Shown one piece after another: positions 64-12,479 of a DNA stretch of 14,471 nucleotides. Location of the stretch: positions 1 through 14,471 of the forward strand of contig DJEG01000015.1 of assembly GCA_002431305.1 (NCBI GenBank), written 5' to 3'. The first letter of the stretch is position 1; the number at the start of each line of letters is the position of its first letter. The position numbers were made by a program, and so were the translations under genes. The stretch comes from Ruminococcaceae bacterium UBA5904 (GTDB lineage: Bacteria; Bacillota; Clostridia; Oscillospirales; Acutalibacteraceae). Under the pieces are notes generated by a model. It did no database searches and was not told where the DNA came from. It worked only from the letters and a program-made list of their open reading frames with translations.

Positions 64-91
64 ACAGCGGTCATCAACAGGTGACTGCTGT
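64..91. repeat. Hairpin over the transposase stop codon
   Basis: Ten-base arms at 64-73 and 82-91 are complementary except for one position, a G.U pair in plus-strand RNA and an A.C mismatch in minus-strand RNA. The transposase stop codon lies at the arm/loop edge. In the transposase direction a T-run begins only about a dozen bases after the stem, so this is at best a weak terminator. It may instead limit antisense transcription. Confidence 0.4.
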
Positions 92-1288
92 TAATTTATC
101 CCGTTGATAAGAAAACATATGCAAGATTCTATTCCTGAATCTTTTAAAATTCCGATAGCCGTATGCATTTCTTTTCAGAACTTTGATTTTGTTGTTACAA
201 CCTTCGGTGAATCCGTTCGTGTATTCAACTGAAAAAGAGTTGATAATCCCGGAATACCAATTACGCATTGTTTTCGCGCATTTTTCAAATTGAGGAATTG
301 AACAGCATTCGGCGTTTGCTATCCACTCGCTCATTGCTTTTCTAGCTTCGTTTTTATCTGTGCATGACAATATGTTTAAAAAATCTTCTTTGTAGTAATA
401 TGCCCGGCTTATGTTGACCGAATAATACAGCATTACGGAGACCTGCTGTTTCTGCTCTTCGGTCAGGTTCTTTGTTCTGCTGATAAGCAAAGACCGCGAA
501 CGTTTAAAGTATTTTCTAAGCTCAGTTCCAAGCTTTTTTTGTTCCTGTTTTCTGACGTTTTCAAATGCCCATACAGCCTGCCTTATCCAATGATATTTGT
601 CCACTATCTGTATTGAATTTTTAAACCATACACTTGCAGTCTCTGAATAAGGTTTCCACATATCGCTTATGAAATATTTAACTTTTTGCCGTTCCTCCTG
701 CGTATATTTCTTAAAATATTCTGTTAGATAGCTGCTGTATCTCTGCGGAAGAATGTCCAGAACAACTTTGTTTTTCGGATTTGTAAGAATACATTGATAT
801 TTTTCGCCGTTTGTATTACCTTTGAATTCATCTATTGCAATAACTTCCGAAAGTTCTGCCGGAGGATACGAAATACAGTCAAAATATCGAATAATAGTTG
901 ATACCGAAAGTCCAGTTTCCCTTGCTATGCTTGTATATGAACATTCGCTTCTTAATCGGTCTATTATGTATTCTTTAAGACGCATTGTTGATCTTTGATA
1001 TTTAGGAAGAAATACATTTCGTTCAAAAAACCGTTTACCGCAGGTGTTGCAGCGGTATCTTCGTTTCTTTAAATGAATAAGAACCGAGCGTCCGAACCCA
1101 TTTATGTCTTTTATTATCTGCGTTCTGTAGTCGTGTATTTTTGTTGTTTCTTTATTGCAGACGGGGCAGAAGTGCGGTTTCCTTTGCATTTGGGCAAATA
1201 TATTTATCTCTTTTTCGCTTTTCTCAATATTTGTTACTTTTACCCCTTGCAATCCGATTATTTTTTCTGTAAAATCAGTGTAGAGCAT
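74..1288 (-). CDS. ISL3-family transposase
   Basis: A 404-aa DDE transposase that would cut and join the ends of the surrounding element. Seen in the sequence: an N-terminal zinc finger with Cys41/Cys44 and Cys80/Cys83, a helix-turn-helix around residues 100-137 (SYTSIARETGLSVSTIIRYF), and a catalytic domain with Asp153 (AIDEFKG), Asp209 (FISDMWKPY) and Glu at about 362 (GFTEGCNNKIKVLKR). This order is standard for ISL3. The start at 1288 is chosen because GGAGG lies 6 bases upstream; an in-frame ATG at 1327 would add 13 unconserved-looking residues and has no good ribosome site. The frame is intact, so the enzyme may be active. The start codon sits inside one arm of a perfect 15-bp inverted repeat (see 1281-1356). 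Confidence 0.95.
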   Translation of the reverse strand: MLYTDFTEKIIGLQGVKVTNIEKSEKEINIFAQMQRKPHFCPVCNKETTKIHDYRTQIIKDINGFGRSVLIHLKKRRYRCNTCGKRFFERNVFLPKYQRSTMRLKEYIIDRLRSECSYTSIARETGLSVSTIIRYFDCISYPPAELSEVIAIDEFKGNTNGEKYQCILTNPKNKVVLDILPQRYSSYLTEYFKKYTQEERQKVKYFISDMWKPYSETASVWFKNSIQIVDKYHWIRQAVWAFENVRKQEQKKLGTELRKYFKRSRSLLISRTKNLTEEQKQQVSVMLYYSVNISRAYYYKEDFLNILSCTDKNEARKAMSEWIANAECCSIPQFEKCAKTMRNWYSGIINSFSVEYTNGFTEGCNNKIKVLKRNAYGYRNFKRFRNRILHMFSYQRDKLTAVTC

Positions 1289-1356
1289 ATTTGACCTCCG
1301 TGTGATGAGTTTTGTGTTTATCTTCATTTTAACGGTTTTTAGTCAAATATGCTCTA
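1281..1356 (-). promoter_or_regulatory. Inverted repeat able to sequester the transposase start codon
   Basis: TAGAGCATATTTGAC at 1281-1295 is repeated perfectly in inverted form at 1342-1356. In minus-strand RNA the downstream arm contains the transposase AUG, and the GGAGG site lies at the loop/arm edge. A transcript entering from outside would carry both arms and could fold over the start. A candidate internal promoter (TTGACT inside the outer arm, with A/T-rich -10-like sequences such as TAAAAT further in) would start RNA within the loop and omit the upstream arm. The repeat is seen directly; the regulatory role is inferred by analogy with IS10 and IS50. Confidence 0.55.
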
Positions 1357-1896: not shown

Positions 1897-3012
1897 TTAT
1901 ATCACGCTTTCATTAAATTCCCTTAGTTTTTCGGGGATATCGATGTGCTGGGGACAGACCGACGCGCACGCTCCGCAGTCTATACAATCGCCGACGGCTC
2001 CCGACCCTGAATTCACAACCTCATTATATTCATAACGCGTCTTGAATTTATTATTATATTTAAGATAGTTATTATAAACCGAGAACATTTTATTTATCTT
2101 AATATTCATCGGACACCCCTCCAGACAGTATCCGCACGATGTACACGGCACGGTCGGGATTTTATTTAAAATATCGGCAACGTCCATTACCTTTTTGAAT
2201 TCGTTTTCGGTAAATTCTTTCTTCAAATCCATAAACGAAAGATTGTCCGTCATCTGACTTAAATCGGACATTCCGCTTAATACCGTGATAACGCCGTCGA
2301 GCGACGAAGCAAACCTCAAAGCCCACGAAGCTATCGACATCTCCGGCTCCGCTTCAAGCAGAATTTTCCTCGCCTTATCGGGCAGAACCGCGAGCGAACC
2401 GCCCCTGACAGGCTCCATAATTATAACGGGTTTACCGTGTTTTCTCGCGACATCATAGCATTTTTTCGACTGAACGTTATCGCTTTGCCAGTCGTAATAA
2501 TTTATCTGAAGCTGTACAAATTCCTGCTCGGGGTGCTTTGTCAGAATTTCGTCGAGAACCTCCGCGCTGTCGTGGAACGAAAATCCCGCGTGCTTTATGA
2601 ATCCCTGTTCTTTTTTCTTCTGTATAAATTCGAATACGCCGAGCTCATCTATTTTATCAAGTTTGCTCTTGCTTAACGAGTGATTTAAATAAAAATCAAA
2701 ATACCCCGCGCCCGTGCGTTCGAGCGACGTATTAAAAATTTTCTCCAAATCCTCGTGCGTTTCACAGCACCAAACGGGCATTTTATCAGCCAGCAAATAA
2801 GAATCTCTCGGATATCTCTGCGCAACAGATTTCTTAAAAGCCTCCTCACTTCCTCCGTCGTCGTAAACGTACGCCGTGTCAAAGTACGTAAATCCTTTTG
2901 ACATAAACGCGTCAACCATTTTATTAAGCTCGCCGAAATCATAACCGCTCTCATTTTTCGGAAGTCTCATAAGTCCGAATCCGAGCTTTTTTATATTAAG
3001 ATTATCAATCAT
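1897..3012 (-). CDS. Aldo/keto reductase with C-terminal 4Fe-4S domain
   Basis: A 371-aa cytosolic oxidoreductase. Residues 1 to about 270 form the TIM-barrel aldo/keto reductase domain, with the expected catalytic set Asp45, Tyr50, Lys77 and His111. The C-terminus carries two ferredoxin-like cysteine motifs: Cys290/293/296/300 (CTSCGYCLEGCP) and Cys343/346/349/353 (CIDCGACASVCP). This barrel-plus-Fe-S architecture is widespread in anaerobic Firmicutes. It suggests electron transfer between a cofactor in the barrel and a ferredoxin-type partner, but the substrate is unknown. The start at 3012 has GGTGA 7 bases upstream. It is the first gene of an operon with ybaK, driven by a good sigma-A-type promoter at 3048-3075. 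The functional pairing with ybaK is unclear. Confidence 0.93.
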   Translation of the reverse strand: MIDNLNIKKLGFGLMRLPKNESGYDFGELNKMVDAFMSKGFTYFDTAYVYDDGGSEEAFKKSVAQRYPRDSYLLADKMPVWCCETHEDLEKIFNTSLERTGAGYFDFYLNHSLSKSKLDKIDELGVFEFIQKKKEQGFIKHAGFSFHDSAEVLDEILTKHPEQEFVQLQINYYDWQSDNVQSKKCYDVARKHGKPVIIMEPVRGGSLAVLPDKARKILLEAEPEMSIASWALRFASSLDGVITVLSGMSDLSQMTDNLSFMDLKKEFTENEFKKVMDVADILNKIPTVPCTSCGYCLEGCPMNIKINKMFSVYNNYLKYNNKFKTRYEYNEVVNSGSGAVGDCIDCGACASVCPQHIDIPEKLREFNESVI

Positions 3013-3047: not shown

Positions 3048-3075
3048 ATTATAAACACAGAATAAAAAAAGTCAA
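3048..3075 (-). promoter_or_regulatory. Sigma-A-type promoter for the aldo/keto reductase-ybaK operon
   Basis: On the minus strand, TTGACT (3075-3070), a 16-base spacer and TATAAT (3053-3048) form a near-consensus promoter. Transcription would start about 30 bases before the reductase ATG. The -35 box and the T-rich spacer overlap the stem base and T-tract of the upstream cassette terminator. Confidence 0.75.
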
Positions 3076-3115
3076 CACGGAAACCGTCGCATATACATAT
3101 AACGGCTTCCGTGTT
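3062..3115 (-). terminator. Intrinsic terminator of the phage-derived cassette
   Basis: The arms AACACGGAAACCGT (3074-3087) and ACGGCTTCCGTGTT (3102-3115) pair at 13 of 14 positions around a 14-base A/T-rich loop. In the minus direction the stem is followed by a 7-T run (3070-3064). A shorter T-run on the other side may make it weakly bidirectional. It lies just after the holin stop codon and closes the ten-gene cassette. Confidence 0.85.
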
Positions 3116-3120
3116 TTTGG

Positions 3121-3372
3121 TTATTTATCTTTTTTGAGTTGTTTTACAATCTGATTACCGTACACCGCGGTGCCCGTTATCAGCACGCCCTGAACTGCGG
3201 ACTCAACATTCCATCCGCCCAGCGCCGTCGCACCGACGACGCCGACAGGTAAAAGTATAAGCGGAATCCACTTGTCGGGAATCTTGTTTATACCCTTAAG
3301 AATTCTCCCTATTATCCATAACGCCGGAATAAGTATATACGCGTTTTCGGTTATATAGCTTAATATTTCCAT
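3121..3372 (-). CDS. Phage holin (Hol44-like, holin superfamily V type)
   Basis: An 83-aa membrane protein with hydrophobic segments at about residues 9-29, 35-54 and 59-76 and a short lysine-rich C-terminal tail (KQLKKDK). The pattern ENAYILIPALWIIG...KIPDKWIPLILLPVG...VQGVLITGTAVYGNQ resembles small Gram-positive phage holins of the Hol44 type. Such proteins form pores that permeabilise the membrane and let the lysin reach the wall. The start at 3372 has GGAGGG about 6 bases upstream; a longer reading from 3462 would add an arginine/cysteine-rich leader that overlaps the upstream gene and is unlikely. The start overlaps the stop of the XhlA-like gene (TAATG). It is the last gene of the cassette, next to the lysin as is usual in phages. 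Confidence 0.85.
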   Translation of the reverse strand: MEILSYITENAYILIPALWIIGRILKGINKIPDKWIPLILLPVGVVGATALGGWNVESAVQGVLITGTAVYGNQIVKQLKKDK

Positions 3373-3662
3373 TACATCCCTCCTTGCATTATACAGGCAA
3401 TAACGCCTGCAGTCAGCGCGGTTCCGACAGCACCGATAACCGCGCCGATAAATTTGTCCCACATCTTTCCGGGACGGTTTTTCATCTCGTTGACTTCGCT
3501 CTGAACGAGACTGATATCCTCTCGCATGTGACGTATTTCCGAAACCATATCGCTGACAGACTGCGTAAGACGTTCCACCACATCGAGCCTTTTATGTGCT
3601 GATTTCACGCTCGCCTCGCTTCTCGTAAGACGTTCGAAAATCTCCCTGTCGTCTTCCGTCAT
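3372..3662 (-). CDS. XhlA-like lysis-associated membrane protein
   Basis: A 96-aa protein whose residues 1 to about 65 are charged and predicted helical/coiled-coil (repeated E/R/K with hydrophobic a/d positions). A single C-terminal membrane segment follows at about 72-92 (FIGAVIGAVGTALTAGVIAC). This layout matches haemolysin XhlA-type proteins, which sit between lysin and holin genes in Bacillus and clostridial prophages such as PBSX and assist lysis. Its ATG overlaps the amidase stop (ATGA) and its stop overlaps the holin start, so amidase, XhlA and holin are translationally coupled. Assignment rests on architecture and position rather than a catalytic motif. Confidence 0.75.
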   Translation of the reverse strand: MTEDDREIFERLTRSEASVKSAHKRLDVVERLTQSVSDMVSEIRHMREDISLVQSEVNEMKNRPGKMWDKFIGAVIGAVGTALTAGVIACIMQGGM

Positions 3663-4408
3663 TCGAGTTTCGCTGCCTTTCTCAGAATTCCGCGCGCGTC
3701 CTCGGCTGTGACTTTGCCGTCCGAATTCATATCCGCGGCGCGTTTCTCCGCCTCGTTTAAACTCTCGATTTTTGCGGCGCCTCTCAGCGCAGTGCGGGCG
3801 TCCTCCGCCGTAATTTTACCGTCGCCGTTTACGTCACCCTTTTTCCTCTCATGCTCTTTATATTCACTTCCTACGACCTCAAGCAGAGCTTTTGAGAGCG
3901 CGAGGGCGAGGGATTCAAAATTTTTATCGAGCGCGTCGTTATCCTTACGGCTCGTGATAAATCCGAGTTCGAGAAGCGATGAATACATATTCGTATACTT
4001 ATTTACGCCGAAATCCGTATAGCTTACGGCTCCGCGCTTTACGCCCCTGTTCTTAAGCCCCGTCGCCTTATTAACGGCTGTGAGAATTATATCGGCTTTC
4101 TTCACGGCTGTGTCATTACCCTTTGAATAAATCCAGATTTCGTTGCCCGTCGCGTCGGGCGACGCGGAATTTCTGTGTACCGACAGAAAGTAATCCGCGC
4201 CCCAGTTGTTAGCGTCGGCGCACGCCTCTTTTATTGTCGCGTCAACGTCCTTTTCCCTAGACAGTCTTACCTTGCAGTCCTGAGTTGAGAGAATTTCCTT
4301 AACTCTCAAACAAAGTCTTAAAACGTCGTCCTTTTCCTTTCTTCCCAAACTCGCAGCACCGGAATCGCTTCCGCCGTGCCCGGGATTGAGATATATTTTC
4401 TTTGACAT
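3659..4408 (-). CDS. N-acetylmuramoyl-L-alanine amidase with C-terminal type I dockerin
   Basis: A 249-aa zinc amidase (Amidase_3 fold) predicted to cut the bond between MurNAc and the peptide stem. Seen: zinc ligands His11 (NPGHGG), Glu25 and His78 (SVHRN), and the catalytic Glu147 (SLLELGF). After a short linker at about 180-190 there are two calcium-binding dockerin repeats, DVNGDGKITAED (192-203) and DMNSDGKVTAED (226-237), each followed by an ARxxLRxAAK helix. There is no signal peptide, so release through a holin is likely, and a holin lies two genes downstream. The ATG at 4408 has GGGGGT 6 bases upstream. A dockerin in place of the usual SH3 or LysM wall-binding domain implies docking to a cohesin-bearing surface protein; the partner is not in the window. 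Confidence 0.93.
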   Translation of the reverse strand: MSKKIYLNPGHGGSDSGAASLGRKEKDDVLRLCLRVKEILSTQDCKVRLSREKDVDATIKEACADANNWGADYFLSVHRNSASPDATGNEIWIYSKGNDTAVKKADIILTAVNKATGLKNRGVKRGAVSYTDFGVNKYTNMYSSLLELGFITSRKDNDALDKNFESLALALSKALLEVVGSEYKEHERKKGDVNGDGKITAEDARTALRGAAKIESLNEAEKRAADMNSDGKVTAEDARGILRKAAKLE

Positions 4409-4428
4409 GTTCTTACCCCCTATCGTTT

Positions 4429-5898
4429 TTACGAGAAATATTTTTTGTAAATCATATTCTCGTCAAACTCTCTTATTTTCTCGCTGTACTCTTTGCGCCA
4501 CTGATCATCGGCAGAATCCGCCTTGCGTTTTGACAATTCGTAATTACGCTCGTTATTTTCGCGCGAATATTCGAGAGATTTATTTTTGTACTCGTTATTT
4601 AATTCGTTCTGCTTTTTTGTCTCCTCGAACTTTTCTCTGTTCAAATCATACTCGGACTGCCACCTGCTCTGCTGTGCGCTTTTTTCGTCCTCATAGCGGT
4701 AACTTTCGGCAATCTCCTGTTCTACCTGATCGTCAAACTTTCTTTCGGCAAGACTGTTTTCAATTTTCTTCTGATTTAAATCCGATTGATACTTTCTCTC
4801 GTTTAAATCATCCTCAAAATCCTGATGAATAACCGATTCAAAAAACTTGCGCTCGTTTAGGTCGTTTTCGGTTTTCTTCTGTTTCAAATCAGACTGATAC
4901 TTTTTTTCGTTTAAATCGTTTTCAATCTGTTTCTGATCTAAATCCGACTGATATTTTCTCTCGTTCAGACTGTTCTCTATCTGTTTCTGACTTAAATCCG
5001 AGCGGTACTTTCTCTCGTTCAAATCGTTTTCAATCTGCCTTTGCTCAAGTTCCGACTGATATTTTCTCTCATTCAAATTATTTTCGGTTTCCTGCTGTCT
5101 GAGTTTGTCGGCGTATTCGGTTTCGTACCTCTTATCGGATATGCGCTCACGCTCGAGAGTATGCTCATAATCGCGGTCTTTATAGTAATTGTCGGCTGAA
5201 TCGGTCATTTCATTATATGCAAGCGAAAGACTATATCTTGCGTCGCTTACTTCGTCGCGGTAACGGGAATAACGTTTGTTCTCCTCGTCAGACAACAGAC
5301 CGTATTTATCATAAAGCGATTTTTCCTCGTCGCGGTAACGTGAATACGCGTCGGAATACATCTGCGGTATTTTATCGGAAGCCTTCGCCATATACTGATC
5401 GTATGCCGTCTGCGCCGAGTTAAAGGCGTATGAATTTCCGTAACCTGCGGACATTTTTGAAGAAGAAGCAAGCGCCTTTTTCGCGCTCTCAAGTCCGACA
5501 TCGCGGTAATTTTTCATATACGCAAGATAGTTTTCGTCCGTCGTATGGTCGTAAGAGAATTCTTTCCTATTGAGAATTTTGTCGGCAAGCTCATTCAGTC
5601 TGTTTTCATAATTCCCCGCGTCGTATGTTCCGGGCTGTAATTTTTTCGCGTTTTCATACTCTCTTTTTTTATTTAAATATTCGTTGTACGAGTCCGTTTT
5701 CATACCTTTGTCCGAAGAATAAGCGTAATTCGGACGCGAATAATCCGTCGACCTGAATCCGGGTCTTGAACCTGAATAATTCGTACGTCCCGATGACGGC
5801 GAACGACTGTATGACGAAACGCCTGAGTCCGGCTGATTGTTTATATTCGATTCTGTTTCGGTAATACGCTCCTTATTTTTTACGGTTTTATTCTGCAT
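4429..5898 (-). CDS. Coiled-coil phage-type structural protein with seven 18-residue repeats
   Basis: A 489-aa protein of unknown function. Residues about 25-65 are low-complexity, rich in Ser, Tyr, Arg and Gly. Residues 90-260 are charged and helical, with recurring YSRYRDE-like segments. Residues 272-397 are seven back-to-back 18-residue units of consensus ENDLNERKYQSDLxQKQI, with units 5 and 7 diverged. Residues 400-489 are charged helix rich in Glu, Lys and Asn. No catalytic motif, signal peptide or membrane segment is seen. Eighteen residues equal five helical turns, so the region could form a long straight rod. The start at 5898 has GAGGAGG 9 bases upstream; the extension to 5931 lies inside the upstream gene. 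Position between the nozzle-like gene and the lysis genes suggests an internal virion, ejection or fibre-like protein, but this is inference. Confidence 0.8.
   Translation of the reverse strand: MQNKTVKNKERITETESNINNQPDSGVSSYSRSPSSGRTNYSGSRPGFRSTDYSRPNYAYSSDKGMKTDSYNEYLNKKREYENAKKLQPGTYDAGNYENRLNELADKILNRKEFSYDHTTDENYLAYMKNYRDVGLESAKKALASSSKMSAGYGNSYAFNSAQTAYDQYMAKASDKIPQMYSDAYSRYRDEEKSLYDKYGLLSDEENKRYSRYRDEVSDARYSLSLAYNEMTDSADNYYKDRDYEHTLERERISDKRYETEYADKLRQQETENNLNERKYQSELEQRQIENDLNERKYRSDLSQKQIENSLNERKYQSDLDQKQIENDLNEKKYQSDLKQKKTENDLNERKFFESVIHQDFEDDLNERKYQSDLNQKKIENSLAERKFDDQVEQEIAESYRYEDEKSAQQSRWQSEYDLNREKFEETKKQNELNNEYKNKSLEYSRENNERNYELSKRKADSADDQWRKEYSEKIREFDENMIYKKYFS
4708..5085 (-). 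repeat. Seven tandem 54-bp coding repeats
   Basis: The sequence encoding the 18-residue units runs without gaps from 5085 to 4708, in frame. Unit starts are recognisable as GAAAAY followed by the codons for LNERK. The units differ at the DNA level, so this is an old, diverged amplification rather than a fresh one. Confidence 0.9.
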
Positions 5899-6046
5899 TA
5901 TTTTTCGCCTCCTCTTTTTTATAAATCTCACGGCATAACGCGTTCAGCTTATCAGCCGTTTTGTTAAGATAATCTATAATATCGGCGATTTTCACGCCGT
6001 TTGTAAAAAGTGAAACGGGAATCTTGTCAAACACAATCCTTCTCAT
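5888..6046 (-). CDS. Small hypothetical protein of the phage cassette (52 aa)
   Basis: A 52-aa protein beginning MRRIVFDKIPVSLFTNGVKI, probably a short beta segment followed by a helical, lysine/glutamate-rich C-terminus (ADIIDYLNKTADKLNALC then KKEEAKNNAE). It is not recognised. The start at 6046 overlaps the stop of the 722-aa gene by ATGA, with GGAGGG 12 bases upstream. Its 3' end overlaps the start of the coiled-coil gene by 11 bases. These overlaps support a real, translationally coupled gene. A longer reading from 6136 would lie inside the 722-aa gene and is rejected. Confidence 0.65.
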   Translation of the reverse strand: MRRIVFDKIPVSLFTNGVKIADIIDYLNKTADKLNALCREIYKKEEAKNNAE

Positions 6047-8211
6047 AATATTTCGCTTCCCTCCTCGAAATCCGCAAACACTCCGAACAGAGAAAATCCG
6101 CCTATTCCCGAAAGACGTATTTTTATATGATCGCACCTTGCGGGGATTACCGGCAGCGTTACTGCAATACCGGGCGCGTCTCTTAATGTAAAGATTCTCG
6201 TAAAAGTGCCTGATGAGTCGTATTCAATTTCGACATTTACGACCGTTCCCGTTTCGGGTTTTATACGAATACCTATTCTCGAAATATATTTTTTTGAATT
6301 TATCGAATAACCTATATCCCCGCTGACAAGAGACCATTCTATATTTTCTTCGTTTTCGAATTCAGCCGGTATCTTTGCTGCCTCCGCGTTCTGAGCGTAA
6401 AGTGCGCCCGACGAATCTATATAGTATACGTTTCCCGCGTCGGCGGTCATACAGACGGCGGTATGCCCCACATTTTCCTTTGTCCATACGTTTTTTGTCA
6501 GGTCATACACATACATCTGCGACTGCGTAAATGTTGCAAGCGAAGCGGAAATCAAATATATTGGATAAAAAAGCGTCGTATAGAGATTTAAATAAATCTT
6601 ATAAAGAACCGACGTGCTTTTTATTCCCGACATCTCGAGCTTTTCACGAGCGGCATTCTGCGCCGCGGATTTTGCACTCGCCTTTACATTCGGGTCAGAC
6701 CGCGCTTTATCATATTCGCGCGAGGATATACTGTTAAGATAGTACTTACCGTCGTGAGCGCACGCGCAAATCGGGATAATATCAAAATCCCCGAGCTGTT
6801 CGGAAATTTTTACGGATGCATTCCCGTTAAACATATATATGCCGTTTGTTCCCGTATAAATCAATCTGCCGTCAGTCTGCGCCGTCGATTCCGCACCGTA
6901 AATATTAACGCCGTCTAACTTTATGACGGAAGCGGAAAAATATCTGTCGAGCATTATCACGCATGTTTCCTTGAAAAAGCATACGTATCCGTTATATCCG
7001 CATACCGCGGTAAATTCGCCGTTTTCTCCTACGCTGAGCATATACGCGCCCGTGTCCGAATCCGAAAGTGAAAAATTTCCGGGCTCACCGAGTTTCGAAA
7101 CATATATTTCGTTAAGCGAACTCTGCACATTTCCCTCGGCTTTCTTAAAACGGCAGCCGTAAAGACGGTTTTCATATGAGCATATTATATCCATATCGGG
7201 AACGGGTCTCGTTACAGAAAGTTCTCCTGATAAATAACTTTCGGCAGCGGAATCCGTAACGCCCCTTATATATATGCAGTCGTTTTCTTCGTCGGTTTTC
7301 ACTACCGTTTTAGTACCCGATAAATACATTGTCCCGAGCGTGCCGGTTTCGCCGGCGGTAATTTCAACGCTGTCCCACTGAGAGAAAAGCGAACCGATTG
7401 AATCTCCGGAGAGTTTCAGATAAGCAATGTCTTTTCCGTACACCGTATTTCCGTCGGAATCTTTTTTCTTAATATAAAGTTCCTCGTCTCTCAGGTCATA
7501 GAATAATGAATCGTTCTGCGCGTTATAATCGGAAACGGCTGACGAGGAAGCCGAGTATACCCCGTCCGACAGCACGGCGGTTTTAAATGCCGATGACGCC
7601 GGACAATATAATATTATGCTGTCGTCGGGATAATCGTGAGAGGCAAGCACTCTGTTAACCGCTTTTTCTCCGCTTTTTGCACTCACGGCAATATCCTTCA
7701 TCTCGTCCGCACTAAGGCATATACACGCCTTAACGCTCCCGGAAGTGCCTATATCTTTATAAAGTGAATCGCACAGCGTGACATCAGCTGCCGAGGAAAA
7801 AGTACTTACAAGAGATTCGAATTTGCCGGAAAGCGTGCCGTATTTTATTTTATCGGGAAATATAATTATATCGGCACCCGATACCGCAGTCTTTTTCTGC
7901 TGAGAATCAAATGAATATCCAGTTATCTCAGCGCCGTTTTTATAAAGAGAATAGCTTCCGTCGTCCTTAGATTCGCTTCTTGCAAAGAAATACAAGTCTC
8001 CGTTAACTTCGTTCATTCCCGACGCTCCGGCGAATGTCTTATTTTTAAGTTTCGCGCGTTTTTTTCTTACGGACATAACGGGCAAGTCGTCGCCGGTCAT
8101 ATTATTCATATCCGAAAATGAACCCGCGTCAATCGTTTTTCTTCTGTCAAGACCGCCGAACGCGTCGACGGTTTTTGTAGTTACGGGATATTCGTTAAGT
8201 CTTTCAAGCAC
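6043..8211 (-). CDS. Large phage structural protein, nozzle/DNA-stabilisation-like beta-propeller
   Basis: A 722-aa beta-rich protein. The N-terminal block (FGGLDRRKTIDAG then FSDMNNMTGDDLPVMS) and repeated segments such as YENRLYGC, NEIYVSKLGEPGNFS, DGKYYLNS and MYVYDLTKNVWTKE recall podovirus tail-nozzle and head-stabilisation proteins (T7 gp12 or P22 gp10 type). These close the head and form the exit channel. Residues 535-561 are strongly hydrophobic and follow an Ala/Lys-rich helical stretch, unusual inside a propeller. There is no signal peptide. An adaptor-like gene lies 13 bases upstream and a coupled 52-aa gene downstream. This assignment is from resemblance of sequence pattern and gene order; the fold needs structure prediction to confirm. 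Confidence 0.7.
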   Translation of the reverse strand: MLERLNEYPVTTKTVDAFGGLDRRKTIDAGSFSDMNNMTGDDLPVMSVRKKRAKLKNKTFAGASGMNEVNGDLYFFARSESKDDGSYSLYKNGAEITGYSFDSQQKKTAVSGADIIIFPDKIKYGTLSGKFESLVSTFSSAADVTLCDSLYKDIGTSGSVKACICLSADEMKDIAVSAKSGEKAVNRVLASHDYPDDSIILYCPASSAFKTAVLSDGVYSASSSAVSDYNAQNDSLFYDLRDEELYIKKKDSDGNTVYGKDIAYLKLSGDSIGSLFSQWDSVEITAGETGTLGTMYLSGTKTVVKTDEENDCIYIRGVTDSAAESYLSGELSVTRPVPDMDIICSYENRLYGCRFKKAEGNVQSSLNEIYVSKLGEPGNFSLSDSDTGAYMLSVGENGEFTAVCGYNGYVCFFKETCVIMLDRYFSASVIKLDGVNIYGAESTAQTDGRLIYTGTNGIYMFNGNASVKISEQLGDFDIIPICACAHDGKYYLNSISSREYDKARSDPNVKASAKSAAQNAAREKLEMSGIKSTSVLYKIYLNLYTTLFYPIYLISASLATFTQSQMYVYDLTKNVWTKENVGHTAVCMTADAGNVYYIDSSGALYAQNAEAAKIPAEFENEENIEWSLVSGDIGYSINSKKYISRIGIRIKPETGTVVNVEIEYDSSGTFTRIFTLRDAPGIAVTLPVIPARCDHIKIRLSGIGGFSLFGVFADFEEGSEIL

Positions 8212-8224
8212 CGTGAAAACCTCC

Positions 8225-8596
8225 CTAAATTGATATCCGACGAGAATCGGTTCTGTGAGTTCTGTTAAAATGCCTTTTATATAAAGAATATAATGTATTG
8301 AACATTATCATCGAATTATTGTATCGTGAATATTCGCAGTTCGCTTTGTTTATCATCGCCTCGAGATAATAAATATAAATGTCGTCGTACCCCGATGAAA
8401 CGAGAAGACGGGTATCCGGGTCGGAGGAGGCGGAATATCCGTCAAATTCGGATATCCCGCTGTCCGCGCGGCGGCTGATGACTTCGTTAAATATTCTTTT
8501 ATCAATTTCGGACAGCCAGCGAACTTTTTCTTCGTAGGTATACTGATTTCCTAACATTCTGCTGTCCGTTACGGCGACGGCGTCTCCGATTGTCAT
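8225..8596 (-). CDS. Probable head-tail adaptor (head-completion) protein
   Basis: A 123-aa mainly helical protein with the pattern YTYEEKVRWLSEIDKRIFNEVI at residues 19-40, then DIYIYYLEAMINKANCEYSRYNNSMIMFNTLYSLY at about 72-106. Long amphipathic helices and this small size, together with a location between capsid and nozzle-like genes, are typical of phage adaptor/connector proteins that bind beneath the portal. No portal is encoded nearby, which is odd for such a protein. The ATG at 8596 has GGAGGT 4 bases upstream. Function is inferred from context and shape rather than a diagnostic motif. Confidence 0.55.
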   Translation of the reverse strand: MTIGDAVAVTDSRMLGNQYTYEEKVRWLSEIDKRIFNEVISRRADSGISEFDGYSASSDPDTRLLVSSGYDDIYIYYLEAMINKANCEYSRYNNSMIMFNTLYSLYKRHFNRTHRTDSRRISI

Positions 8597-8617
8597 ATTA
8601 ACCTCCGCTTTTTTTAT

Positions 8618-8845
8618 TTAAATTCCCGGTGCGAAACGAACGCTCTCGCCGTACTCGTCCGCAGCGTCCGACGCTCTGAAACTCTCCTCAACCGCTTCTT
8701 TGAAACGTTCGGGGATTCTGACCTTTTCGCCGTATTTGATTCTTATCGCCTCATCGTTTACGGACACATACATAGCGTCCTCGCCTTTAGGCGCATACAT
8801 TTTGGGAATAACAACCTCGTAAAGTTTTTCTTTTCTCTTTGCCAT
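8618..8845 (-). CDS. Small post-capsid phage protein (75 aa)
   Basis: A 75-aa charged protein beginning MAKRKEKLYEVVIPK, with a beta-rich middle (MYVSVNDEAIRIKYGEKVRIP) and a helical C-terminal half. It sits 18 bases after the capsid gene and 21 before the adaptor-like gene, and has a clear GGGGAG ribosome site. Small proteins with a VSVN...G..V.IP pattern are common directly downstream of capsid genes in Firmicutes prophages, but their role (decoration, completion or assembly) is not established. No enzymatic motif is seen. Confidence 0.7.
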   Translation of the reverse strand: MAKRKEKLYEVVIPKMYAPKGEDAMYVSVNDEAIRIKYGEKVRIPERFKEAVEESFRASDAADEYGESVRFAPGI

Positions 8846-8863
8846 TTTATTTTTCTCCCCTTT

Positions 8864-10105
8864 TTAGTTTTCCTCGTCTACCGAACTGAACTCAGAACCG
8901 CACTCTACGCGGACAAGTCTCTCAGGATAGAGGATTTTGCATCCGTACATGAATTTATATCCTATTGTCGAATACAGATTAAGCGGATTTTCCGTACCTC
9001 CGGAGTTTTTATCGTGGATTATCATCTCGAGTCCCGCTCCCTCGGGGTCGACGATTCCGTATGCCTTAGCGCCCATTGCGATGTTGCAGTATACAGCGGA
9101 ACCGTCCTTGCCCGCGCCTGTTCCGCAGATAATATCTCCCGCGGCGGCGGTTACGTCGTTTTTAAGAGTCAGAACGCTGTTGTCTCCGCTCTCGGTAATT
9201 GCCGTAACAGAATTCTCCTTGCCCGCAATATATACGGGAATATCAATATCGGAAACTGCGGTAAGCTTTTCGTTTACGGTTACGCTCTTGCCTGCGCTCG
9301 TTACGGCAGTCTTTACGGTGAGTTTGTTAAGAGAATCGGAAATAACTGCGGGAGCAATGACCTTAACGTTGTCATTTTCGATAAATCTTACGCCGTGAAG
9401 TTCGCCGATTTCTCCGTTGAAAATCTCCTTAACCGCAGAATATTTATGAACGTCCTTCCAGCCGTCGGACTCTCTTATGTCAAACGAACATGAGGGATGT
9501 ATCATCATAATGAAACTGCCGTCAATCTTAGGCGCCTTCGCCTTTTTAAGTTTCGTAGCAACCTTATTGATAAGCGTGGGTGTGAGAATACAGTTTTTGT
9601 TTATGTCCTTTCTCGAGGTTACCTCGTTTTCGCCGTCGGGGGCATAATATACGTTCGTACCGGAAATAACTCTGTTTCTTATAAGTGTGTCCTGTGTTTC
9701 GCCCGCACTCGCGCCCATCTCCTCTGCAGCGCCGAGAATCACGTCGTCAATAGCCTGAAGCTCGAGTTTATCCGTAATCTTCGTGTACGTACCGTGCTGA
9801 TAACATTCTGTTTCGATTTTTGTCGAACCGAATGTCTGCCCGGTAGGAGTAACGCCCTCGGTAAGCGGAGTGAGTGCCTTATCGAATGTATTCCACTTTC
9901 TCCACTCTACCTTATTTCCGCCGCCCGCGGGAAGAGGCTGTTTCTCGCCGAACTGGCTGAAAAACATATCCTTACGCGAGTTCTCAAGAAGTTCCGTGTC
10001 ATAGAATTCCTTCATCTGAGCCGACATTGAGCTCTGAGTCGTTTTGTTTGCATCAGAAGCGTCTGCAAACAGCTGAATATTAACCTTCATTACCTTTTCT
10101 TTCAA
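8864..10105 (-). CDS. Major capsid protein, N4-gp56 family
   Basis: A 413-aa (or 408-aa) capsid subunit expected to have the HK97 fold. The diagnostic block at about residues 78-155 contains LTPLTEGVTPTGQTFGSTKI, HGTYTKITDKLELQAIDDVI and ETQDTLIRNRVISGTNVYYA, as in N4-gp56-type capsids. The C-terminal block (AMGAKAYGIVDPEG ... YSTIGYKFMYGCKILYPERLVRVE) is also typical. Residues about 250-340 form an extra beta-rich insertion. The TTG start at 10105 has AGGGG 9 bases upstream; the ATG at 10090 gives the more family-like start MKVNIQLFADA but has a poorly spaced site, so the start is uncertain. The probable scaffold gene lies 25 bases upstream, the standard order. Confidence 0.92.
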   Translation of the reverse strand: MKEKVMKVNIQLFADASDANKTTQSSMSAQMKEFYDTELLENSRKDMFFSQFGEKQPLPAGGGNKVEWRKWNTFDKALTPLTEGVTPTGQTFGSTKIETECYQHGTYTKITDKLELQAIDDVILGAAEEMGASAGETQDTLIRNRVISGTNVYYAPDGENEVTSRKDINKNCILTPTLINKVATKLKKAKAPKIDGSFIMMIHPSCSFDIRESDGWKDVHKYSAVKEIFNGEIGELHGVRFIENDNVKVIAPAVISDSLNKLTVKTAVTSAGKSVTVNEKLTAVSDIDIPVYIAGKENSVTAITESGDNSVLTLKNDVTAAAGDIICGTGAGKDGSAVYCNIAMGAKAYGIVDPEGAGLEMIIHDKNSGGTENPLNLYSTIGYKFMYGCKILYPERLVRVECGSEFSSVDEEN

Positions 10106-10130
10106 TTCCTTTTTCCCCTTTCGTTTTCTG

Positions 10131-10979
10131 TCAGAAATAAATTTTCTCTCCCGCTTTGACTTTTCTTCTGATATCTTCGCGGGCTTTTTTGGATAAGTTT
10201 TTCATATCCGTACCAAACGATGCCGCCGAAATATTTGAACTTCCGTTTTCATTCGGGCGCATTCCCCTCGCCCTTACGTTCTGAGCGAACGCCTCGCTCA
10301 TCTTTTTTGCAGCGGAAGAATCTATTGACTCTTTGTGTCTTAAATAGTATGCCGAATCCGCGCTGACTCCGCTTTTTAAAAGCCTCAGGAATTCGGGATC
10401 TGACGCAATCTCGTTTTTAAGGTCGAATTCGGGATCGTACAGTTTTCTGATTTTATCCGATTCTCTCTCCCATTCTGCGAACATCTCCTCGTTACGTCTT
10501 AATTTGTAAAACTCGGTCGCCTGTTCTCTGAGCATTGCGTTTTCGCGTTCGAGCGCGTCCATTCTCGTCATCTGCTCCGCGGTGCATCCGCGTTTTGTAA
10601 CAATTCCCTCATTCATTGCGGGATCCGTCATAACGCCTCTTATGATGCCGTCGATATCCCCGGAATTTACGCCGTATCTTACGGCGAGAATGTTAAGCAT
10701 CGAATCGAGTTTTGAAAGAATCCGAACGGCTTTTTCGCACGACTTCCTGACATGTATGTTTCTTTCGTTTTCGATACGCTCGGCGTATTTCTTTCTGAAC
10801 GACTCATACTCGTCCGGCTGTACAGCTCCGTCGTTTTCAACTCCTGCTTCGTTTTTGTCCGGAATAAAAACATCCTTTCTTTCGTCCGCATTTTTTTCGG
10901 CGTCTTTAATGCCGCCGGACTTTTCGGCGCCGTCTTTTGTTTTCGGTACCTGTTTTGTCTGTTTCTGAGACACTTGCAT
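10131..10979 (-). CDS. Probable capsid scaffolding protein
   Basis: A 282-aa highly charged protein. Residues 1 to about 60 are disordered (Lys/Glu/Asp/Gln-rich); residues 60-180 are predicted helical with coiled-coil character (MDALERENAMLREQATEFYKLRRNEE); the C-terminal tail is basic (KKAREDIRRKVKAGEKIYF). Position directly before the capsid gene, charge pattern and basic C-terminal helix fit phage scaffolds that template capsid assembly and bind the shell through that helix. No protease motif is seen. The ATG at 10979 has AAAGGAG just upstream. It is the first gene of the cassette, where a portal gene would normally precede it; none is present. Confidence 0.7.
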   Translation of the reverse strand: MQVSQKQTKQVPKTKDGAEKSGGIKDAEKNADERKDVFIPDKNEAGVENDGAVQPDEYESFRKKYAERIENERNIHVRKSCEKAVRILSKLDSMLNILAVRYGVNSGDIDGIIRGVMTDPAMNEGIVTKRGCTAEQMTRMDALERENAMLREQATEFYKLRRNEEMFAEWERESDKIRKLYDPEFDLKNEIASDPEFLRLLKSGVSADSAYYLRHKESIDSSAAKKMSEAFAQNVRARGMRPNENGSSNISAASFGTDMKNLSKKAREDIRRKVKAGEKIYF

Positions 10980-10997
10980 TTCTCCTTTCTCACCCTG

Positions 10998-11015
10998 CCG
11001 AAAGCTTACATTCGG
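10998..11015. repeat. Short hairpin in the cassette leader
   Basis: CCGAA at 10998-11002 pairs with TTCGG at 11011-11015 around an 8-base loop. It lies about 13 bases before the AAAGGAG ribosome site of the scaffold gene and may affect leader stability or ribosome access. A T-run follows it in the plus direction, but no plus-strand gene ends here. Confidence 0.35.
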
Positions 11016-11040
11016 TTTTAATAATACTTGTTAAGTTTCA

Positions 11041-11078
11041 GGCGGTACTGAGTACCTGCCGGGTGTGAGAAGATTATA
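11041..11078 (-). promoter_or_regulatory. Candidate promoter and palindrome of the phage-derived cassette
   Basis: On the minus strand a perfect TATAAT (11078-11073), read in context as CATATAAT, has no good sigma-A -35 box at 16-18 bases (best matches are 3 of 6). A palindrome with arms GGTAC/GTACC and a 3-base centre, extended by GGC/GCC, follows at 11060-11041, where transcription would just have started. It could be an operator or a 5' RNA hairpin. The leader from there to the scaffold ATG is about 85 bases. Promoter assignment is inference; the palindrome is seen directly. Confidence 0.45.
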
Positions 11079-11128
11079 TGACATATTCGCCCCGTTTTTA
11101 CATCCCGCCTCTCCAGAAAAAGGTCAAC

Positions 11129-11162
11129 AAAAAAAACGCCGTAAGACAAAAGCCTCACAGCG
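11129..11162 (-). terminator. Intrinsic terminator of rodA
   Basis: In minus-strand RNA the arms CGCUGUGAGG (11162-11153) and UCUUACGGCG (11146-11137) form a ten-pair stem with three G.U pairs and a 6-base loop, followed by eight Ts (11136-11129). It lies about 40 bases after the rodA stop and separates rodA from the phage-derived cassette. Confidence 0.7.
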
Positions 11163-11198
11163 CTTAATAATAATTTATAAATTTGATATATCAGTATA

Positions 11199-12377
11199 TC
11201 AGTCGCTCCACAAGTCAATGCGTCCGGGTCTGAAATTAACCGCGGCATGTTCCTGTTCATATCTGTAAACGCTCAGCATAAGTCCGACGCCCAAATGTAT
11301 GCACAGATTCGAGCTTCCGCCGGCAGAGAAAAACGGAAGAGTTATACCAATAACAGGCAGAAGTTCAAGACACATTCCGATGTTTATAAGCACCTGACTT
11401 CCTATCATAGCCGCCATACCGTAGCACAGCAGAGAGCCGGCGTTGTGTCTCGCTTTATTTCCGTTGCGCACGATTCTTGCGATTATCATAATAAAAACAA
11501 GAAGCACGATTATACAGCCGAAAAGTCCCGCTTCCTCGCCGACGACGGAAAATATCATATCGTTTTCGCTCTCGGGGACAAGTCCTCTCTGCGTATATGT
11601 TCCCTGTAAAAATCCTTTGCCCCAGAAACCGCCTGAACTGATAGCCTTAAGTCCCTGTTCCTGCTGATATATGATATCCTCGTAATCCTCGGGATGAATC
11701 AGGGCTAAAAACCTGTCCTTCTGAAGCTGTTTTAAAACGAATTTCCACGCAATCGGAACCGCTCCGGCAACCGCGGCTGCACCGAGTCCGAAATAGCGCA
11801 TCGGCAGTCCCGCGCAGAACATCATTACTATAAAAATGCACATGAATACAAGCGCGCTTCCCATATCTCCGCTGACAGCGACGAGTAAAACGGGAATAGC
11901 CCCGTGAATACAGAGCATCATAACGTTTTTTAACTTTCCTATTTCCTCCCTGACCTTGTCAAGATGCGCGGAAAATGTTATTATGAATCCGATTTTTACA
12001 AGCTCTGACGGTTGAAAGTACAGTCCCGTATTACCCAGTACTATCCATGTTTTAACGTCGCTTCGCGATTCGGGACCTACGCCGATCAACAATGTCAGCA
12101 CCATAAGCCCGACGCACACGACCCCGACCAACGGCCACAATCGCAGGAAAATTTCGTAGTCTATCAGAGAAATAATCAGCGCCGCCGCAATTCCGACGCC
12201 GACCGCCATTATCATGGTTTTTGCGTCTCTTGAAATAAACGCGCCCTCTTTTACGGACGAATACGTCGCAGAGTAAACCATCAATACTCCGTAAACCGAC
12301 GCTGTTATACAAAGAAGCGATAAAAAAATGTCCGTTTCCTTGATAAATGTTTTAATGTATGCTATAATCTGTTTCAT
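11199..12377 (-). CDS. rodA: Rod-shape SEDS peptidoglycan glycosyltransferase RodA
   Basis: A 392-aa polytopic membrane protein with about ten membrane segments. It polymerises lipid II into glycan strands together with a class B penicillin-binding protein in the elongasome. Seen: QPSELVKIGFI, SGDMGSALV, the large-loop motif LVPESENDMIFSVVGEEAG containing the conserved Asp, and the C-terminal signature CLELLPVIGITLPFFSAGGSS. The absence of a long N-terminal extension and the motif pattern favour RodA over FtsW, though the two families are close. The start at 12377 (MKQIIAYIK) has GGAAAG about 8 bases upstream; the longer reading from 12479 adds an unlikely leader that includes the promoter. 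It appears monocistronic, with its own promoter and terminator, and is divergent from tsaE. Confidence 0.9.
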   Translation of the reverse strand: MKQIIAYIKTFIKETDIFLSLLCITASVYGVLMVYSATYSSVKEGAFISRDAKTMIMAVGVGIAAALIISLIDYEIFLRLWPLVGVVCVGLMVLTLLIGVGPESRSDVKTWIVLGNTGLYFQPSELVKIGFIITFSAHLDKVREEIGKLKNVMMLCIHGAIPVLLVAVSGDMGSALVFMCIFIVMMFCAGLPMRYFGLGAAAVAGAVPIAWKFVLKQLQKDRFLALIHPEDYEDIIYQQEQGLKAISSGGFWGKGFLQGTYTQRGLVPESENDMIFSVVGEEAGLFGCIIVLLVFIMIIARIVRNGNKARHNAGSLLCYGMAAMIGSQVLINIGMCLELLPVIGITLPFFSAGGSSNLCIHLGVGLMLSVYRYEQEHAAVNFRPGRIDLWSD

Positions 12378-12450
12378 AAAAGGTCTTTCCTTGTTTACGC
12401 GTAGAAAATTGACGCCCGCCTGCTGAAACGGCGGATATACATGCACAACA

Positions 12451-12479
12451 ATTATATAATTTAGACGCGTATATTGCAA
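12451..12479 (-). promoter_or_regulatory. Sigma-A-type promoter of rodA
   Basis: On the minus strand TTGCAA (12479-12474), a 17-base spacer and TATAAT (12456-12451) give a near-consensus promoter. The transcript would begin about 65 bases before the rodA ATG. The divergent tsaE gene starts 43 bases to the right. For tsaE only partial elements are visible (TTGACG at 12484 and TATAAA at 12501 are too close together), so no plus-strand promoter is called. Confidence 0.75.

What the first reader, a model, noticed from the sequence alone, without database searches (positions are those of the whole stretch)
3074..11078. Insulated capsid-neck-lysis cassette with no portal, terminase or integrase
Seen: ten intact, tightly packed co-oriented genes (scaffold, N4-gp56 capsid, small protein, adaptor-like, nozzle-like, 52-aa, coiled-coil, amidase, XhlA-like, holin) with a candidate promoter at one end and a strong terminator at the other, set between ordinary host genes. 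Known: functional tailed phages and most GTAs need portal and terminase, normally just upstream of the scaffold gene; here that space is 219 bases holding the rodA terminator and a promoter. Inference: loss of only the DNA motor while head, neck and lysis frames remain open suggests a domesticated particle or export/lysis device, or a satellite using packaging genes elsewhere. A recently decayed prophage is the null explanation.
Basis: partly seen in the sequence, partly recalled or inferred. Interest (0 to 1): 0.78.

Follow-up and report, generated by a model that had tools for sequence, protein, structure and literature searches.

The report
Scattered phage-derived DNA-packaging particle genes
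A bacterium known from draft genomes carries the shell, neck and lysis genes of a virus-like particle here, while the matching DNA-packing motor and fibre genes sit elsewhere in the same genome, kept by selection, so it probably makes gene-transfer-agent-like particles rather than carrying a dead virus.

Summary
In detail: ten intact co-oriented genes (scaffold, N4-gp56-type capsid, 75-aa, adaptor, nozzle, 52-aa, coiled coil, amidase-dockerin, XhlA-like, holin) lie between rodA and a reductase gene, with no portal or terminase. The inference that the DNA motor is lost is wrong. The same genome, and a second species of the genus, carry a repressor-TerS-TerL-portal cassette and a two-gene fibre cassette at two other loci among host genes. 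In the 95%-complete second genome this is the only clear large terminase. Between the two species the larger genes of all three loci are under strong purifying selection (dN/dS: capsid 0.016, TerL 0.026, portal 0.05), with synonymous divergence in the range of flanking genes or lower. Recent decay is refuted. Best reading: the head/neck/lysis module of a multi-locus, podovirus-derived, gene-transfer-agent-like particle. The closest known system is FpGTA of Faecalibacterium (January 2026), where motor and capsid share one operon. Motor and capsid also lie apart in three other genera of the family (split in 7 of 21 genomes in which both genes were found, linked in 11, unresolved in 3), in two separate terminase lineages. 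Packaging and transfer of DNA are inferred, not shown.

The parts
10131..10979 (-). scaffold protein gene (282 aa), first gene of the cassette
   Evidence: phrog_13908 (unknown function) E 1.4e-41; its homologue between portal and capsid in phage G300 also matches the PHROG head scaffolding protein, E 3e-4; dN/dS 0.10 between two species
8864..10105 (-). major capsid protein, N4-gp56/P22-like type (413 aa)
   Evidence: phrog_1357 E 7.7e-74; 7282 of 8000 scored candidates match at E up to 1e-3, and 5 of the 120 listed are named N4-gp56 family major capsid protein by a source; dN/dS 0.016, Fisher p 1e-44
8618..8845 (-). 75-aa conserved protein of unknown role
   Evidence: phrog_15239 E 1.5e-4; syntenic homologue in phage G300; 6 synonymous, 0 nonsynonymous changes
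8225..8596 (-). head-to-tail adaptor (123 aa)
6043..8211 (-). tail nozzle (722 aa)
   Evidence: phrog_511 E 2e-35; top Foldseek hits are phage tail-complex chains (model pLDDT 67); dN/dS 0.11
5888..6046 (-). 52-aa protein, overlaps both neighbours
   Evidence: homologue at the same place in phage G300; 3 synonymous, 0 nonsynonymous changes
4429..5898 (-). coiled-coil protein (489 aa), no family match
   Evidence: homologue in phage G300; dN/dS 0.21 with in-frame indels; no Pfam or PHROG hit
3659..4408 (-). N-acetylmuramoyl-L-alanine amidase (endolysin) with C-terminal type I dockerin
   Evidence: Amidase_3 5.7e-36, Dockerin_1 2.5e-11; phage G300 has the same fusion; 58 codons comparable with the second species: 7 synonymous, 0 nonsynonymous
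3372..3662 (-). XhlA/hemolysin-like membrane protein (96 aa)
   Evidence: phrog_937 hemolysin E 2.2e-8; Pfam XhlA only E 0.033; homologue in phage G300
3121..3372 (-). holin (83 aa)
   Evidence: PF16079 E 1.5e-18 (on a 93-aa frame that starts upstream); phrog_1129
3052..3122 (-). intrinsic terminator after the cassette
   Evidence: -24.2 kcal/mol, z -4.66, followed by a T run; not listed by the consensus scan
11120..11175 (-). rodA terminator upstream of the cassette
   Evidence: -20.4 kcal/mol, z -5.6, followed by a T run
11095..11106 (-). 12-mer GGGATGTAAAAA, candidate promoter or regulatory element, also just upstream of the unlinked fibre cassette
   Evidence: present at both loci in both species; a shared word of 12 or more arose in 9 of 2000 shuffles; suggestive only
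11199..12479 (-). host gene rodA (flank)
   Evidence: PF01098 E 6e-73; same neighbour in the second species
1897..3012 (-). host aldo/keto reductase gene (flank)
   Evidence: PF00248 E 1e-40; this side could not be seen in the second species (masked)

Best explanation
The window cassette is the head/neck/lysis module of a domesticated, multi-locus, short-tailed-phage-derived particle of the gene-transfer-agent type. The other modules lie at two more loci among host genes of the same genome. Locus A holds a divergent S24 repressor, a small HTH protein, a 78-aa protein, TerS, TerL and portal. Locus C holds a BppU-type fibre and a 151-aa protein. SHOWN: the three loci exist in two species, each with at least one side of shared host neighbours, and the larger genes are under purifying selection. 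SHOWN: only one clear large terminase exists in the near-complete second genome. INFERRED: when the repressor is inactivated, as S24 repressors are after DNA damage, TerS/TerL/portal are made; scaffold and capsid assemble on the portal into a small head; the terminase fills it with host DNA; adaptor, nozzle and fibre close it; and holin plus amidase lyse the producer. INFERRED: the particle then delivers DNA to relatives.
For: TerL and portal are found outside the cassette in both genomes of the genus, and fibre plus 151-aa genes at a third locus. All these are homologues of modules of one temperate phage, G300. dN/dS between the species: capsid 0.016, adaptor 0.06, scaffold 0.10, nozzle 0.11; TerL 0.026, portal 0.05, TerS 0.09, fibre 0.098. 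dS is 0.10-0.54 in the element and 0.22-0.48 in nine flanking genes. One strong terminase in the 95%-complete genome. No integrase seen by eye beside the three loci. Motor and capsid are also unlinked in genera g102, g93 and g66. In g102 TerS-TerL and portal stand near the same ileS-like gene in three species at TerL dS 1.2-1.3. FpGTA precedent: podovirus-like, two loci, host DNA packaged (PMC12946183).
Against: No particle, packaged DNA or transfer is shown. The 3086-aa protein of phage G300 has no full homologue in either genome, so DNA delivery could be impaired, although at least 18 kb of the second genome is masked right after the amidase start and the first genome is only 68% complete. 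TerL of G000 falls on a contig end with two Ns and a change of frame beside them, so its integrity there is not shown; it is intact in G001. The coiled coil (0.21) and 151-aa protein (0.20) are less constrained, and HTH67 (0.33) rests on 9 changes. Holin, XhlA and most of the amidase could not be compared. Repressor, HTH67, 78-aa, 52-aa, 75-aa and adaptor genes have lower dS (0.10-0.14) than the flanks, on few changes. TerL is closer to phage G300 (dS 0.62) than capsid (1.43, C-terminal part) or portal (2.65), so genes are still exchanged with phages. Only two genomes of the genus are held.
Confidence: 0.7

Rival explanations
1. A PBSX-like or lysis-only device: particles or lysis proteins are made and kept by selection, but they kill or lyse instead of transferring genes.
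For: The lysis genes are present and the large protein of phage G300 is missing. The FpGTA authors leave the same possibility open for FpGTA.
Against: TerL and portal are among the best-conserved genes (dN/dS 0.026 and 0.05), which a lysis-only device would not need; adaptor, nozzle and fibre are kept as well.
Confidence: 0.14
2. A phage satellite or part of a helper-dependent element that supplies capsids and takes packaging genes from a helper phage such as a G300-like prophage.
For: A related temperate phage exists, and TerL has been exchanged with its lineage more recently than other genes.
Against: No integrase, primase or replication gene recognised with the window cassette or with loci A and C. 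TerL and portal are already in the same genome.
Confidence: 0.07
3. Decaying prophage, split by rearrangement and kept by chance.
For: Complete relatives of the phage exist, one large gene is missing, and a 53-aa piece of it lies in a frame between host genes of the second genome.
Against: Open frames and strong purifying selection at three loci in two species; the g102 arrangement is kept at TerL dS above 1.
Confidence: 0.06

Closest known systems
FpGTA of Faecalibacterium (PMC12946183; abstract and sections 9, 10, 26 read)
   Same: Podovirus-like module set (TerS, TerL, portal, scaffold, capsid; fibre and lysis genes in a second operon), no replication genes, in gut Clostridia; operons far apart on the chromosome.
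   Different: In FpGTA motor and capsid share operon I, while fibre and lysis share operon II. Here motor, capsid+neck+lysis, and fibre are three separate loci. Sequence homology to FpGTA proteins was not tested because they could not be fetched by name. Particle production is shown only for FpGTA.
BhGTA (VSH-1) of Brachyspira (PMC9662315; section 3 and passages read)
   Same: A structural gene cluster with a single terL located outside it, conserved across the genus.
   Different: Gene transfer is experimentally known for BhGTA. Here portal and TerS travel with TerL, and the host phylum differs.
Temperate phage G300 (IMG/VR 3300012662_000029, 40,050 bases with a 98-base exact end repeat)
   Same: Carries homologues of the packaging, head, neck, fibre and lysis genes of all three loci in one collinear order, including the dockerin-amidase; capsid 83-86%, TerL 96-97%.
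   Different: Has an integrase and an early region and a 3086-aa protein absent from the genus; the locus A repressor and HTH67 have no match in it. It is a virus, not a scattered set.
P22-like podovirus heads and necks (P22, Sf6, T7)
   Same: Portal is P22_portal; adaptor nearest to P22 gp4/Sf6 gp7; nozzle nearest to short-tailed phage tail chains such as those of Pa223, T7 and P22.
   Different: Genes are not one late operon but three loci; the fold matches are of moderate strength.

Membership tests
Gene transfer agents (definition in PMC9662315, section 3) | caudoviricete-derived proteins forming the particle | tested here: met
   Similarity part met: capsid, portal, TerL, holin, endolysin families and nozzle/adaptor folds; that a particle forms is not shown
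Gene transfer agents (definition in PMC9662315, section 3) | fully endogenized in the host genome, often across multiple loci | tested here: met
   Three loci among host genes in each of 2 genomes of the genus
Gene transfer agents (definition in PMC9662315, section 3) | mostly vertical inheritance, co-diversification with hosts | tested here: inconclusive
   Shared neighbours and flank-like or lower dS in 2 species point to vertical upkeep; no host phylogeny was compared, and TerL shows exchange with a phage
Gene transfer agents (definition in PMC9662315, section 3) | encapsidates mostly random host DNA | not testable with these tools
   needs particles
Gene transfer agents (definition in PMC9662315, section 3) | own genome cannot be fully packaged | not testable with these tools
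   head size unknown; three unlinked loci make packaging of all genes on one fragment implausible
Gene transfer agents (definition in PMC9662315, section 3) | DNA delivered to other cells | not testable with these tools
   needs transfer assay
FpGTA | operon I with TerS, TerL, portal, scaffold and capsid together | tested here: not met
   scaffold and capsid are at the window locus, TerS-TerL-portal at another
FpGTA | sequence homology to FpGTA proteins | not tested
Complete prophage | portal, terminase and integrase linked to capsid | tested here: not met
Phage satellite (capsid-forming PICI and similar; features recalled) | integrase and replication genes linked to the packaging/capsid genes | tested here: not met
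   none recognised by eye among the frames of the window or beside loci A and C; no integrase family search was run on the whole genome

The most novel reading that the evidence does not exclude
A widespread class of short-tailed gene transfer agents in gut Clostridia has repeatedly broken the phage late operon apart, so that the DNA motor and the shell sit in separate, separately regulated chromosomal cassettes. The split is stable over long times and arose at least twice. It would act as a two-key safeguard: a DNA-damage-type repressor controls the motor, and a shared promoter element controls shell and fibre. It would also explain why packaging seen in gut genera without an identified gene cluster has escaped annotation.
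Probability: 0.35. Interest if true: 0.82.

Novelty: new variant of a known kind. Interest (0 to 1): 0.7.

Why it matters
By its authors' account FpGTA, published in January 2026, is the first podovirus-like gene transfer agent; they saw GTA-like packaging in other gut genera too, and of four MAGs searched only one gave a strong candidate operon. This locus gives concrete genes in other Clostridia and shows that capsid and terminase need not be neighbours, so searches that require linkage would miss such systems. It turns 'who packages the DNA' into a search for unlinked TerS-TerL-portal and scaffold-capsid cassettes that co-occur in one genome. It also gives a case for asking why phage modules are scattered and how expression of unlinked modules is coordinated.

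Tried and rejected
Window nozzle as query in viral contigs: 4 pattern matches, none a relative. Giant 3086-aa phage protein (its last 2926 residues): one 55-residue match (78%) in G001, none in G000, in a frame of unclear meaning. A common operator for all three loci: exact-word comparison found no word of 10 or more, conserved in both species, shared by locus A with B or C (in G000 alone A and B share 10 bases). The operator scan dropped repeated sequences before printing, so it does not show absence of imperfect copies at B or C. The 11-mer GGGATGTAAAA has 3 hits in G000 (loci B, C, one inside a gene) and 4 in G001 (B, C, one upstream of an ATPase-like gene, one inside a gene); the reversed control pattern has 0 and 1. 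Reading the linked relatives as all 'ordinary prophages' was given up: G078 and L055 have host-type genes on both sides, and L044 and L047 host-type genes upstream, so some may themselves be GTA-like operons; not resolved. In the capsid tree only the 258-aa piece of the phage capsid was used, and several rows in both trees are long branches, so deep placement is unsure. A second, much weaker terminase-profile match in both genomes (G000:C41, G001:C55, E about 1.5e-4) was not followed. Literature searches in the held library; no listing showed a motor/capsid-split system in Clostridia, but preprints and most subscription papers are not held, only two papers were opened, and the rest were seen as listings.
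Full report

THE COMPLETE PHAGE RELATIVE. A capsid search of viral contigs gave 19 loci. The closest, G300 (40,050 bases), has its capsid gene split over the contig ends (83% and 86% identity), which share an exact 98-base repeat, as in a circular genome. It looks like a temperate phage: integrase, TerS, TerL, portal, scaffold, capsid, 75-aa, adaptor, nozzle, 52-aa, coiled coil, a 3086-aa protein, a BppU-type fibre, a 153-aa protein, amidase with dockerin, XhlA-like, holin. Against this map the window lacks TerS-TerL-portal, the 3086-aa gene, the fibre and the 153-aa gene.

THE MISSING MODULES ARE ELSEWHERE IN THE SAME GENOME. The phage TerL and portal hit both genomes held for the genus. In G001 (95% complete) they lie at C16:53739-56990. 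In G000 portal and most of TerL lie on C90; TerS and the start of TerL lie at the end of C62. A contig break and two Ns, with a change of frame beside them, fall inside TerL of G000. The locus reads: divergent 222-aa HTH/S24 repressor, 67-aa HTH protein, 78-aa protein, TerS, TerL, portal, then a convergent aminotransferase-like gene, with matching neighbours on both sides in the two genomes. The fibre query finds a third locus, a 234-aa BppU_N fibre plus a 151-aa homologue of the phage 153-aa protein, behind the same permease-like gene in both genomes; downstream neighbours differ. The 3086-aa query (last 2926 residues) gives one 55-residue match in G001 and none in G000; 53 residues align at 81%. 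Terminase family searches find one clear large terminase in G001: PF03237 one match, and phrog_2 one at 9e-45 plus a second at 1.6e-4 not followed up. Names of host neighbours other than rodA and the reductase are my reading of the sequences.

SELECTION. G001 carries the window cassette beside the same rodA-tsaE-tsaB-rpiB block. dN/dS (Nei-Gojobori, two genomes): capsid 0.016, adaptor 0.062, scaffold 0.103, nozzle 0.112, coiled coil 0.21; the 75-aa and 52-aa genes have no nonsynonymous change (6 and 3 synonymous); rodA 0.068. Locus A: repressor 0.13, HTH67 0.33 (9 changes), 78-aa 0.04 (6 changes), TerS 0.09, TerL 0.026 (residues 152-481 only), portal 0.05. Locus C: fibre 0.098, 151-aa 0.20. 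Synonymous divergence is 0.10-0.54 in the element and 0.22-0.48 in nine flanking genes; six short genes of the element are below the flanks (0.10-0.14). No stop lies in any aligned stretch; the coiled coil has in-frame indels. Holin, XhlA and all but 58 codons of the amidase could not be compared, because that stretch of G001 reads N. Close capsids (17 listed clusters at 94-99% identity) include one on 62 contigs up to 207,874 bases, too long for a 40-kb phage. Recent decay is not compatible with this; upkeep at fixed loci is supported.

HOW GENERAL. The capsid was found in 26 of 300 family genomes (E up to 1e-3) and TerL in 35 of 398 (E up to 1e-30); both counts include the two g1 genomes. 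Of the 21 genomes with both, 11 have them 2.7-3.9 kb apart and 10 have them on different contigs. I count 7 of the 10 as split, because host-type genes stand where the missing genes should be: G000, G001 (g1), G102, G202, G271 (g102), G197 (g93), G066 (g66; judged on the capsid side, and no portal on either contig). Three (G061, G074, G188) are unresolved at contig ends. In G197, TerS-TerL-portal lies beside the ATP synthase operon and scaffold-capsid-adaptor-nozzle on another contig, each more than 49 kb from the near end of its contig. In the three g102 genomes TerS-TerL and portal stand on either side of an ileS-like gene, 5-9 kb apart, with the portal gene turned the other way in G202, and the capsid operon is on another contig. 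G370 and G326 (g93) have TerS-TerL-portal-90-aa-amidase cassettes, but their capsids were not searched. These genes too are constrained: g102 TerL 0.05-0.08 at dS 1.2-1.3 and capsid 0.04-0.10 at dS 0.7-1.0; g93 TerL 0.09 at dS 1.7. In the TerL tree (43 rows) the g93 and g102 rows fall in one fully supported clade of 15 with linked relatives, while g1 groups with phage G300 in another; the splits therefore arose at least twice unless split forms were rejoined. Several linked relatives have host-type genes beside them as well.

PHAGE-HOST EXCHANGE. Between G001 and phage G300, TerL has dS 0.62 and 96-97% identity, whereas portal has 2.65; between the window and G300 the capsid (258 residues) has 1.43. 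TerL has therefore been exchanged more recently than the rest; the direction is not known.

REGULATION. Locus A has a sigma-70-like promoter region with the palindrome TAGCCAAAATGGCTA and a partial copy. The window cassette and the fibre cassette share GGGATGTAAAAA just after the upstream host terminator, in both species; in G000 two of three genome-wide 11-mer hits are these, in G001 two of four. A shared word of at least 12 bases arose in 9 of 2000 dinucleotide shuffles, and three locus pairs were looked at. This is suggestive of shared control of shell and fibre, not proof.

COMPARISON WITH THE KNOWN. FpGTA of Faecalibacterium (PMC12946183; abstract and sections 9, 10, 26 read) is a podovirus-like GTA with a 10.5-kb operon (TerS, TerL, portal, scaffold, capsid and more) and a second 5.5-kb operon (baseplate, fibre, holin, endolysin) about 125 kb away in one strain. 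It makes 40-nm particles with about 9 kb of DNA; 8.4-8.9 kb in the metagenomes. The authors report GTA-like packaging in Gemmiger, Onthomonas and Ruminococcus callidus among others, and of four MAGs searched one gave a strong candidate operon. BhGTA of Brachyspira has its single terL outside the structural cluster (PMC9662315, section 3 and passages read), so an unlinked terminase has precedent. What differs here is that the whole motor (TerS, TerL, portal) is apart from the whole shell, in more than one genus. I found no such report in ten searches of the held library.

VERDICT. A GTA-like, multi-locus, domesticated podovirus particle. Of the GTA definition, caudoviricete-derived proteins and several endogenous loci are met; vertical upkeep is supported in two species but not tested by a host phylogeny; packaging of random DNA and delivery are untested. 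New variant of a known kind.

Noticed in passing
window 74-1327 (-): ISL3-like transposase gene (name by eye) with GC 0.36 against 0.43-0.46 around it, near the contig end.
   Followed up: no
window 3659-4408; L079:17162-17914: Endolysin with a C-terminal type I dockerin in both the window and phage G300: a phage lysis enzyme with a cellulosome-type docking module.
   Followed up: partly
L098:5629-6579 (G001:C16): 316-codon frame holding 53 residues 81% identical to the 3086-aa protein of phage G300, between transporter and glycosidase genes (names by eye); perhaps a phage remnant.
   Followed up: partly
L041:8039-8383, L047:7905-8246, L049:8505-8828, L053:8138-8470, L135:3209-3562: About 110-aa protein resembling the ribosomal-processing protease Prp (recalled) lies just after portal in linked relatives and next to portal in g102; none was seen after portal at the g1 locus or in phage G300. 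It may be the head protease of this group.
   Followed up: no
L044 and L047, upstream of TerS: Linked relatives have a threonine-synthase-like gene and an HTH regulator upstream of TerS, with an ImmA/IrrE-like gene as well in L044 (names by eye): a possible fixed insertion place.
   Followed up: no
L145 (G370) and L146 (G326): Five-gene cassettes TerS-TerL-portal-90-aa-amidase in genus g93 stand in different host surroundings (next to a groEL-like gene in G370).
   Followed up: partly
L089:8876-9112; G300 32402-32677; L055:4968-5249; L047:3763-4104; L143:106-447: A cysteine-rich small protein recurs upstream of TerS in phage, linked and scattered forms; a candidate regulator. The L089 copy matches no Pfam or PHROG family.
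   Followed up: no
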